From: Aptenodytes patagonicus
Taxonomy: Eukaryota > Chordata > Aves > Sphenisciformes > Spheniscidae
Direction of reading: 5' to 3'
Length of the DNA: 64,000 nt
Assembly (NCBI RefSeq): GCF_965638725.1
Contig: NC_134974.1
Coordinates: forward strand, 2,502,143 to 2,566,142
Shown: positions 16,201 to 19,200 of the stretch, piece after piece
How positions within the stretch are numbered: position 1 is the stretch's first letter
How the letters are laid out: every line of letters begins with the position of its first letter
Made by a program: the position numbers and the translations under genes
The notes under the pieces: model-generated
Database searches by the model: none
Seen by the model: the letters and a program-made list of their open reading frames with translations, nothing else
Told to the model about the DNA's origin: nothing

Positions 16201-19200
16201 GTTGATGCTTTGCTTTTTCCCCTTCCCCACTAGGTGCTGTCAGGAGCAAAGGGCCTGTAGTGCAATACACGCAAGATTTAACGGGAGCTGGTACCCAGTA
16301 CAAACCTTTAGAGCAAATGCAGGCAGCCTCGCTGGCTGCACGGTCCGTTTCTCCGCAGCCTGCTGAGATGGAGTAAGTACTTGAGTCAGTTCTCTGCTTC
16401 CACCACTACCTCCTTCGCGTTTCGTCTCCAGTGCTCAGCTCTTTCAGGCACCGCCCTTTCTGTGTAGAGGAATCCTCAGGTGCGGGTTTCCTCCATGACT
16501 AGGCTTGTTTCCTGGTTGCACAAAGCGGTTTTAGTCATGCTTCTGGGGGAAGCTGTAGATAAAGGCTGCTGGATGAGTAATTGGGGGCGGGAGAGCTGAC
16601 GGCCCAGCACCCCCTGAGCCAAATGCCATGTTCTTACTCAGGGCTAAAGCTTCGCACTTGATGTATTTCCAAGTTAGAACGTTTGCTCCTTCTCTTCCGA
16701 AAATCTGAATTGCTCCCTCGTGTCACGATCCAGGCACTGGCCCCCGGCTGCCTTGTATTCCTCCACTCGGACTGACCTGCTCACAGACCTCAATGACTTA
16801 CGAGGCACTGAGAACTTGGGATCAGTGGTTGGTCTCGGTGGTCACGGACCAGACCTGATAAAGCTCGGCCACGGCCAAGTCGCACACGTGCCTCCTGCTG
16901 CCAGGGGCCCAAGCGGGACGTTCTCGGAGGTGCAGGCTAGTGCCGAAGGAGGCCTGGATGAAGGAGGAACGCGGCCTTGTGATGAAGGGAGCGTGCCGGA
17001 GAACACCAGGGTACCTGAGCACGTGCTCTGGGACTTTAATAACTTTCTAGGGGAGAGAGATGCTGTCCCGGTTCATTTTTGTCACCACTGTGGATTTCCT
17101 ATCCGAATTTATGGACGCCTGGCCCCCTGCCACCACGTCTTCTGCTGTGACTGTGCCTTGCTGCACGGGCAAAAGGGAGAAAGGAGATGTCCCAGCTGCA
17201 AGGAACCTGTGCAGCAAGTGAATCTTTATTCACCGGATGCTCTCTAGGTGTAGCAGCATCTAAGAAACCCCACCTGCCCCCAGCCTCCCGTCTCAGGAGG
17301 GGGTTCCTCTCCAAGCACCGGTGCAATGTGACCCATTCCGCCCCTGGATGTGGGGGCTAACTTGGAAATGCTCCTCCTGTGCCATTCCGACCAAGACTTG
17401 AGAATCGAAGCCATAATAGCCTTGTTCCTCGTCTCTTTCATAACCAAGGAGAGAGGCCGGTGCTGAAGGAGGTCTGCCCCAGCGTGAGAAACGCCGACGC
17501 TGGCTCCTCCACCGTCGGTCTAGGGCCCCGCCCGCGAACGGAGGAAGAGCTGGGCTGTTGCCCTAACACTGGGGCACCCTGAGCTGTCGAGGGTGTAGGA
17601 AGGACGTGCGATGGCACGGCATGAAGATGGTGAAGTTGGACTGCGGCGATCAGCCAGCCTGCCGTCTCGTTGGCCTCCGAATCTCTCCTTTTCCATTTAA
17701 CAGGCCTTGCAGTGGTTACAAGGAACACTTCTTTGTTTTCCCTCTCCCCACAGAGGCTTTGACTTTAGGATCTTGTTTTCAGGTCTAATACAAGCAGACA
17801 CTACAGACGTTTCCCTGCCCTGCCGTTAAATAGTGAACTGCTTAAAGACAACTGTTTTTTAACATTTGAAGGCAGCATTCTTACATCCATGTCCCCGCTG
17901 CCCGGAGGGATACTGTTGGGTTCAAAACACATTGGTTTTAGATTATTAAAACTGGGAGAATGGTTTCTTCACTCTGGTGTTTCGTTTACTCTGAGGAAGG
18001 CCTGGTTCTCCTCCCTCTCTAGTCTCACTTTCTTCTGTGGTGCCAGGGAGCTGCTGTCAGCCTTTTCTGACTGTTTAAAGCCCGTTGACGGAAGCTTTTT
18101 TTCTCTTGCTCTTGAATTTTGAAATGCGCGTTAACACCTTGCTTTTAAGGCAGATGTTTGCAGAAACGGTCACTCCCTCCTGCTCTCGCTGTCTCCTCCC
18201 TTTCTGCCCTGATAACGTAACTGTGTTCTTCCACTTGTGGGAAAACTAGTGGCTGGTTTGGGGTGTTTTTCTGTTTAATCGGTGCAAACGGATTGAAAAT
18301 CTCCGCTGTTGTTTTCTCAGAGTGTGAGGGCTGGTGTCTTCCAGGTGCCTCCCACCTTCCCGATGTTGTCCGTCGGGCTGCAGAGGTGTTTGGGGGCCCC
18401 TCGCAGCCCTTTCATCAGCGATGTTGTTACATTCCCTTGTACAATTTTATCTCGTTACTTGGTACGGACAAAAGAGTCCTCTGTACTTCTTGTTCCTCCC
18501 ACTGCTCAGTACTCTGGCACTGACGAGCCTCTGTAAACTCTTGTTTCTGCTATTGCAGGGGTTTCTTCATCTACTGGTTTGTCCAGCTTCCTGAAATGAA
18601 GGCCTTGGACATCCTCGTTACACTCCCTCTCACCCTCATGCCTCACTTCCAAATAAATAGCAGTATGTCAGAAGTCACTTTTAAATGTAGCTGAGCTCTG
18701 GCATTTGGTCGGGGTTGTTGCGGGATTGCTGTAGCACAAATAGTCAGAAACGGGCTGATTTTCACGCTCGTTAGGAAAAAATCCGCTCGGTTTCTCTTGG
18801 ATGGGGCACTGTTGCTGACTTCCACGGCGGAGTGTTGTTTTGACTGCCCCTGTCTGTCTAAATCCTGCCAGTTGTGTGAGCGTGTGCGTCTTGCAAATCG
18901 CCTCCCTTCTTCCCTCGTGCAGATGCTCCGACAGTCAGCTGGCCCAGTCGAGAAAGCAAGTGGCCAAGAAAAGCACTTCCTTCCGTCCTGGCTCCGTGGG
19001 CTCTGGGCAGTCGTCGCCTTCTTCGCCCGTCCTAAGTGATACGCCTCCGGCGGGAAGGACCGGTGCGTCCCAGCAGCTTCGGTAAGCAAAGCTTGTTCGC
19101 GCTTACTACAAACGCAGCAATATCCCTGCGTCCCTGTGAGAGTTGGGGATGCTGGTACAGGTTCGGGGCTTGTTTGGTTTCGTGCAGGTTTATTTTGTTA

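What the first reader, a model, noticed from the sequence alone, without database searches (positions are those of the whole stretch)
16734..17247. Hakai-type RING exon nested in SETDB1: a possible Tudor-RING fusion protein
Seen: a 171-codon same-strand frame in SETDB1 intron 11 with all RING metal ligands and Hakai signature residues ([19 protein letters not shown]). No ATG exists between the upstream in-frame stop (16675) and its own stop, so it cannot start by itself. An acceptor at 16733 and the split codon match SETDB1 exon 11, and AATAAA follows at 18652. Known: human SETDB1 also has short N-terminal isoforms ending in alternative 3' sequence. Inference: this bird makes a 642-residue protein with SETDB1 coiled coil and triple Tudor region but a RING ubiquitin-ligase domain instead of MBD/SET, which could bring ubiquitination to Tudor-read chromatin or compete with SETDB1.
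Basis: partly seen in the sequence, partly recalled or inferred. Interest (0 to 1): 0.92.

Follow-up and report, generated by a model that had tools for sequence, protein, structure and literature searches.

The report
Hakai retrocopy inside bird SETDB1 gene
Inside a bird's SETDB1 chromatin gene sits an old reverse-transcribed copy of another gene, Hakai, whose zinc-finger part has stayed readable and could be spliced onto SETDB1 to make a hybrid protein, although no RNA evidence could be examined.

Summary
16735-17247 (+) is open for 170 codons, lies in a SETDB1 intron (16373-18922), has no ATG back to the stop at 16675, and carries a Hakai RING (PDB 2mq1, E 1.6e-19). It is therefore a processed retrocopy. 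CBLL1's start codon aligns with CTG 16777; the C2H2/HYB half and proline-rich tail are gone. All eight zinc ligands remain (30/47 RING-core identity; dN/dS 0.3-0.5 by method). Neutral simulations kept such a frame in 3/40000 runs at 0.3 substitutions/site and 0/40000 at 0.45 or more. Best reading: an old CBLL1 retrogene captured as an alternative last exon of SETDB1, giving about 635 residues (N-terminus plus Tudor domains, then mini-Hakai), as in TRIMCyp. The splice is inferred: the acceptor is modest, the phase matches (1 in 3 by chance), and no RNA or other bird was available. A stand-alone mini-Hakai or a recently dead retrogene remain possible. Ubiquitin-ligase activity is uncertain without the HYB half.

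The parts
10288..16372 (+). SETDB1 coding exons upstream (9 in my model: 10288-10499, 10839-11016, 11670-11769, 12198-12365, 12659-12860, 14188-14261, 14638-14828, 15716-15845, 16234-16372); N-terminal region and Tudor domains
   Evidence: tblastn with a recalled human SETDB1 probe, splice boundaries and phases, PDB SETDB1 Tudor chains E 6e-117, Pfam Tudor_4/Tudor_5. The 3' end of 10839-11016 is a guess.
16373..16378 (+). donor after the SETDB1 exon ending at 16372 (GTAAGT), phase 2
16732..16733 (+). candidate acceptor AG before the retrocopy exon
   Evidence: score 6.83 on a model built from 16 SETDB1 acceptors; 3.3% of 1095 AGs (itself included) reach it; best AG in 16560-16800 and in frame; lower than 14 of the 16 known acceptors scored leave-one-out
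16734..17247 (+). candidate alternative last coding exon: 14-residue lead-in, then CBLL1 retrocopy (N-terminus plus RING), stop at 17245-17247
16777..16779 (+). CTG at the position of the CBLL1 start codon (-3 G, +4 C)
   Evidence: alignment, codon and context
17080..17199 (+). RING zinc ligands, C-x2-C-x12-C-x-H-x2-C-x2-C-x11-C-x2-C, all eight kept
17248..18680 (+). putative 3' UTR; no CBLL1 C-terminal or 3'UTR similarity above shuffles; ATTAAA 17945, AATAAA 18652
18923..26794 (+). normal downstream SETDB1 exons (MBD, pre-SET, SET) absent from the proposed fusion
   Evidence: recalled probe; Pfam MBD and start of pre-SET

Best explanation
A CBLL1 (Hakai) mRNA was reverse-transcribed and inserted in sense orientation into a SETDB1 intron long ago. 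Its coding half with the N-terminus and RING stayed under selection; the original ATG and the C2H2/HYB and proline-rich half were lost. The copy is now reached by splicing from the SETDB1 exon ending at 16372 to 16734 and ends at a poly(A) signal in the intron. The product, about 635 residues, carries the SETDB1 N-terminal region and Tudor domains joined to a mini-Hakai. The most likely action is as an adaptor: the SETDB1 half binds SETDB1's partners and Tudor ligands, the Hakai half brings an E2 or Hakai's partners, and use of this exon also lowers full-length SETDB1. Shown: retrocopy, open frame, retained ligands, phase match. Inferred: splicing, translation, function.
For: Collinear with own-genome CBLL1: DNA score 653 against a best of 118 in 60 shuffles, protein score 307 against 67 in 300. 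CBLL1's introns are absent: junctions 2-5 clearly, junction 1 only at the edge of the homology. pN 0.336 against pS 0.595 over 147 codons, dN/dS 0.38 (bootstrap 0.20-0.60); RING 0.30 (0.10-0.70). Neutral simulation without indels: open frame plus eight ligands plus RING identity of at least 30/47 in 107, 3, 0, 0, 0 of 40000 runs at 0.2, 0.3, 0.45, 0.6, 0.8 substitutions/site. In the last 216 nt aligned before a final 4-nt indel there is one gap, of 3 nt. No ATG in frame, so the sequence needs an upstream exon or a non-AUG start. Acceptor in frame with the host donor. This intron is the longest of the 13 SETDB1 introns I listed (not all of them), 2549 against at most 1326. The own-genome protein searches list one such retrocopy (their counts are lower bounds).
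Against: No transcript evidence. The acceptor is modest, and ten other AGs in the intron score higher, including 17753, 17703 and 16904, which lies inside the frame and is in phase. The phase match is a 1 in 3 coincidence, and 14 open lead-in codons are uninformative. Other dN/dS methods are less favourable: YN00 0.51 overall and 0.53 for residues 97-165, ML 0.42 and 0.37 (YN00 failed on the N-terminal part). Pairwise dN/dS mixes a slow CBLL1 branch with the retrocopy branch; if CBLL1 contributed half of dS and no dN, the retrocopy's own ratio would be roughly double (about 0.6 in the RING and near 0.9 in the N-terminal linker by the values), so constraint is clear only for the RING. The CBLL1 sequence used as ancestor in the simulations is modern. 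Selection may have acted on an earlier stand-alone retrogene.
Confidence: 0.5

Rival explanations
1. A stand-alone mini-Hakai retrogene nested in SETDB1: its own promoter and 5' exon inside the gene supply the ATG, or translation starts at the CTG that replaced the CBLL1 start codon, giving about 156 residues of N-terminus plus RING.
For: CTG 16777 is exactly at the CBLL1 start position with a G at -3. Retrogenes often recruit new promoters and 5' exons (general knowledge). The RING is constrained whichever way it is expressed.
Against: I know of no separate 5' exon or promoter, but none of my calls could find a eukaryotic promoter. The five residues at the old start (MDHND against LLTDL) are all changed while the next ones (NDLQGT against NDLRGT) are kept, as if the old start was no longer used.
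Confidence: 0.25
2. A retrogene that was functional for a long time and has recently died in this lineage: the start codon is gone, the C-terminus is cut, and the frame is open only because too little time has passed.
For: Loss of ATG and of the HYB half is what decay looks like. The N-terminal linker is close to neutral on a generous branch correction. Neutral runs keep the frame open in 7% of cases at 0.2 substitutions/site.
Against: The C-terminal half of CBLL1 is not detectable downstream (score 90 against a mean of 101 in 40 shuffles), which neutral drift reached only at about 1.0 substitution/site in simulation (12 runs per value). Unless that half was deleted, the truncation is old and the RING outlived it.
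Confidence: 0.2
3. A chance open frame or an independent RING exon of SETDB1, unrelated to Hakai by retroposition.
For: None found.
Against: Collinear similarity over about 150 codons spread over six CBLL1 exons, far beyond shuffles.
Confidence: 0.02

Closest known systems
CBLL1 / Hakai (and its mammalian paralogue ZNF645/CBLL2)
   Same: N-terminal ~155 residues including the RING align; all eight zinc ligands kept.
   Different: Intronless, no own ATG, ends straight after the RING; no C2H2/pTyr part of the HYB domain and no proline-rich tail. ZNF645 keeps the HYB domain (PMC11749156, passages).
TRIMCyp (TRIM5 with a retrotransposed cyclophilin A)
   Same: A retrocopy of an unrelated gene fused to a host gene product (PMC4378998, abstract and passages); that it replaces the host's last exon is recalled.
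   Different: Here expression is unproven, the retrocopy is much more diverged from its parent (TRIMCyp side recalled), and the host is a chromatin enzyme rather than a restriction factor.
Chimeric retrogenes of zebrafish and frog
   Same: Retrocopies joined to host coding sequence (9 and 16 cases; PMC3136929, passages).
   Different: That survey's chimera screen covered only those two species; it found 78 retrocopies in chicken (same passages).
Human SETDB1 isoform 3 (about 400 N-terminal residues)
   Same: C-terminally truncated product of alternative splicing that keeps the N-terminal region (PMC11582049, passages).
   Different: No RING or retrocopy is described for it in the passages read.

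Membership tests
CBLL1/Hakai family | Hakai-type C3HC4 RING with all eight ligands | tested here: met
   phmmer 2mq1/3vk6 E about 2e-19; ligand pattern
CBLL1/Hakai family | HYB domain (RING plus C-terminal C2H2 pTyr-binding part, zinc-linked dimer) | tested here: not met
   frame stops after the RING; no CBLL1 C-terminal similarity above shuffles downstream
CBLL1/Hakai family | Hakai N-terminal region (NDLQGT through WDF/WDY and LGE) | tested here: met
   alignment
Processed retrocopy | parent's introns missing | tested here: met
   CBLL1 junctions 2-5 crossed within the homology, junction 1 at its edge
Processed retrocopy | poly(A) tail and target-site duplication | not tested
   not searched for; unlikely to survive at pS about 0.6
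Chimeric retrogene (TRIMCyp-like) | transcript joining host exon to retrocopy | not testable with these tools
   no RNA data
Chimeric retrogene (TRIMCyp-like) | usable acceptor in the phase of the host donor | tested here: inconclusive
   in frame, but modest score
SETDB1 | Tudor domains in the fused part | tested here: met
   Pfam Tudor_4, Tudor_5; PDB SETDB1
SETDB1 | MBD and bifurcated SET | tested here: not met
   in exons 3' of the retrocopy stop (MBD and pre-SET by Pfam; SET by recalled probe)
Active RING E3 ligase | ubiquitin transfer with an E2 | not testable with these tools
   needs a biochemical assay

The most novel reading that the evidence does not exclude
A bird SETDB1-Hakai fusion that bridges two systems that silence retroelements: the SETDB1 N-terminal/Tudor module reading chromatin and binding SETDB1's partners, and the Hakai N-terminus/RING tying in the m6A writer complex (through VIRMA) or ubiquitinating SETDB1-bound chromatin; an old, selected regulator of heterochromatin made by retrogene capture.
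Probability: 0.15. Interest if true: 0.85.

Novelty: new variant of a known kind. Interest (0 to 1): 0.62.

Why it matters
Chimeric retrogenes such as TRIMCyp show how a new protein can arise in one step. The chicken genome has few retrocopies (78; PMC3136929, passages), so an old one with a conserved RING inside a central silencing gene of a bird would be notable. If spliced in, it would give birds a SETDB1 isoform without methyltransferase but with a Hakai module. Mouse work already links the m6A machinery to Trim28/Setdb1 silencing of retroviruses (PMC10794949, passage), and Hakai is a subunit of the m6A writer that binds the SUN domain of VIRMA (PMC11877144, passage). The claim is cheap to test with existing RNA-seq.

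Tried and rejected
Structure prediction of the 170-residue exon alone gave mean pLDDT 35.4, so no fold search was made.

Relatives: a viral-contig scan with residues 95-170 had 2 pattern matches and no relative, and tblastn of the same stretch on plasmids found none. No eukaryote collection other than the window's own genome was available, so neither conservation in other birds nor dN/dS between birds could be tested.

Considered and rejected: chance frame; internal cassette exon. A possible donor at 17219 (CAA|GTGAAT, seen by eye in the sequence) would give a 485-nt exon, which shifts the SETDB1 frame. Retention of the intron instead of splicing reaches a stop at once after ...PAEME.

Literature: SETDB1 with Hakai (21 papers, 20 listed, none on a fusion by title or start of abstract), SETDB1/isoform/alternative polyadenylation/Tudor (5), CBLL1/ZNF645/retrogene (7), retrocopy/terminal exon/fusion/intron (113, 10 listed), retrogenes in birds (34, 10 listed), SETDB1 short isoform (14, 8 listed), Hakai-like/CBLL1-like/CBLL1L (2, both plant papers) and retrogene/SETDB1/intron/chimeric (7): no listing reports this exon. 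Listings only, apart from the passages cited. This is not proof that no report exists; the library lacks most subscription papers, and gene annotations of bird genomes were not searchable.

Full report
What is there. The window holds SETDB1 on the + strand from about 10.3 to 26.8 kb (located with a human sequence recalled from memory). Between the coding exon ending at 16372 and the next one at 18923 lies the longest of the 13 introns I listed (2549; the list is not complete). Within it, 16735-17247 is open for 170 codons and a stop. The frame is closed upstream by TAG at 16675 and has no methionine.

What it is. Residues 113-163 match the solved Hakai RING with E 1.6e-19. Searching the window's own genome (1.35 Gb, 618 contigs) found the exon itself and CBLL1 exons on contig C1; the other nine hits were weak (E 0.018 or worse), and I read them as unrelated RINGs without checking. 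I assembled CBLL1 from six exons (493 codons, one withheld stretch). The nested frame aligns with CBLL1 from NDLQGT at residue 6 to about residue 155, with protein score 307 against a best of 67 in 300 shuffles and DNA score 653 against a best of 118 in 60 shuffles. CBLL1 breaks its first 155 codons with five introns; the nested frame has none. Junctions 2 to 5 lie well within the homology; junction 1, in codon 5, lies at its very edge, where only the DNA alignment reaches. That is the mark of a processed retrocopy. No similarity to CBLL1 above shuffles was seen upstream of the start or downstream of the stop. The CBLL1 ATG aligns with CTG at 16777.

Is it conserved? Identity is 68 of 156 aligned residues overall and 31 of 51 over residues 113-163, 30 of 47 in the core span used for the simulation (counted by hand from the alignment). 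pN is 0.336 and pS 0.595 over 147 codons; dN/dS 0.38 (0.20-0.60), RING 0.30 (0.10-0.70), N-terminal part 0.43 (0.00-0.86). YN00 gives 0.51 overall and 0.53 for residues 97-165, ML 0.42 and 0.37. Because CBLL1 itself hardly changes at the protein level (general knowledge), the retrocopy's own ratio may be up to twice these numbers; the RING then still shows some constraint and the linker little. Neutral simulations with GC 0.55 gave an open frame, eight ligands and the observed RING identity together in 107, 3, 0, 0, 0 of 40000 runs at 0.2, 0.3, 0.45, 0.6 and 0.8 substitutions per site, before counting frame-breaking indels. An earlier run with a simpler model gave 1, 1, 0, 0 of 4000 for frame plus ligands at 0.3, 0.45, 0.6, 0.9. 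Pairwise dS of 0.8-1.2 suggests 0.4-0.6 on the retrocopy branch if it holds half. The remaining CBLL1 coding sequence would stay detectable by alignment up to about 0.8 substitutions per site in simulation (lowest of 12 scores 212; at 1.0, median 132 and lowest 91), yet the real downstream sequence scores 90 against a mean of 101 and a maximum of 144 in 40 shuffles. Either it was deleted or it decayed for very long while the RING did not.

Could it be read? Without an ATG it needs a host exon, another 5' exon, or a non-AUG start. The SETDB1 exon ends in phase 2, and an AG at 16733 lets it join in frame. A small model made from 16 SETDB1 acceptors scores this AG 6.83. That is above two of them (-3.62 and 3.74, leave-one-out) and below fourteen (7.54-15.98); 3.3% of 1095 AGs, itself included, reach it; it is the best AG between 16560 and 16800. 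Ten AGs of the same intron score higher, one of them inside the frame and in phase (16904). Three of nine SETDB1 donors in my model are phase 2 (10499, 12860, 16372), so other host exons could join as well. Two poly(A) signals follow, against 0.49 expected in the intron. The joined product is 635 residues in my model, with Tudor_5 and Tudor_4 and without MBD, pre-SET and SET, which lie 3'.

How it might work. The passages read say that ATF7IP binds SETDB1's N-terminal region and that Tudor domains anchor SETDB1 to histone and other substrates (PMC11582049). The fusion would keep these parts. The Hakai half keeps the N-terminus and RING. Hakai binds the SUN domain of VIRMA in the m6A writer (PMC11877144); which Hakai part does so is not clear from the passages. 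Hakai's ligase activity is said to need dimerisation, which uses the HYB domain (PMC11749156), and half of that domain is missing, so a ligase cannot be assumed. The nested RING has Lys right after the last zinc ligand (CPSCK), where bird CBLL1 has Asn and the solved Hakai Ser. From memory, Arg or Lys at this place is the linchpin of many active RINGs; this is a lead only. An adaptor or competitor of SETDB1, with or without ligase activity, is my best reading.

How sure. Retrocopy origin: about 0.97. Selection on the RING for much of its history: about 0.85. Fusion with SETDB1 as the current use: about 0.5. These are judgements, not computed. The decisive data, RNA and other birds, were not available here.

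Noticed in passing
window 17703, 17753, 18558: Three AGs in the same SETDB1 intron score like strong acceptors (13.0, 14.9, 11.7), downstream of the retrocopy stop; unexplained, perhaps decoys or splice sites within the 3' UTR.
   Followed up: no
window 11001-11020: SETDB1 coding exon 2 has no clear donor where homology ends; TCA|GTATCT at 11017 keeps the phase but looks weak.
   Followed up: partly
window 7065-8114, 35834-36388, 40199-40714, 57253-57769: Long tandem arrays (72-base, 52-base, 33-base and 60-base units).
   Followed up: no
window 38224-38435: About two direct copies of a 114-base unit that, from memory, resembles the 3' end of avian CR1 elements.
   Followed up: no
L004 (G000:C1:15760895-15760959): A stretch of the own-genome CBLL1 last exon reads N, so the CBLL1 protein used here has unknown residues in its C-terminal part.
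   Followed up: no
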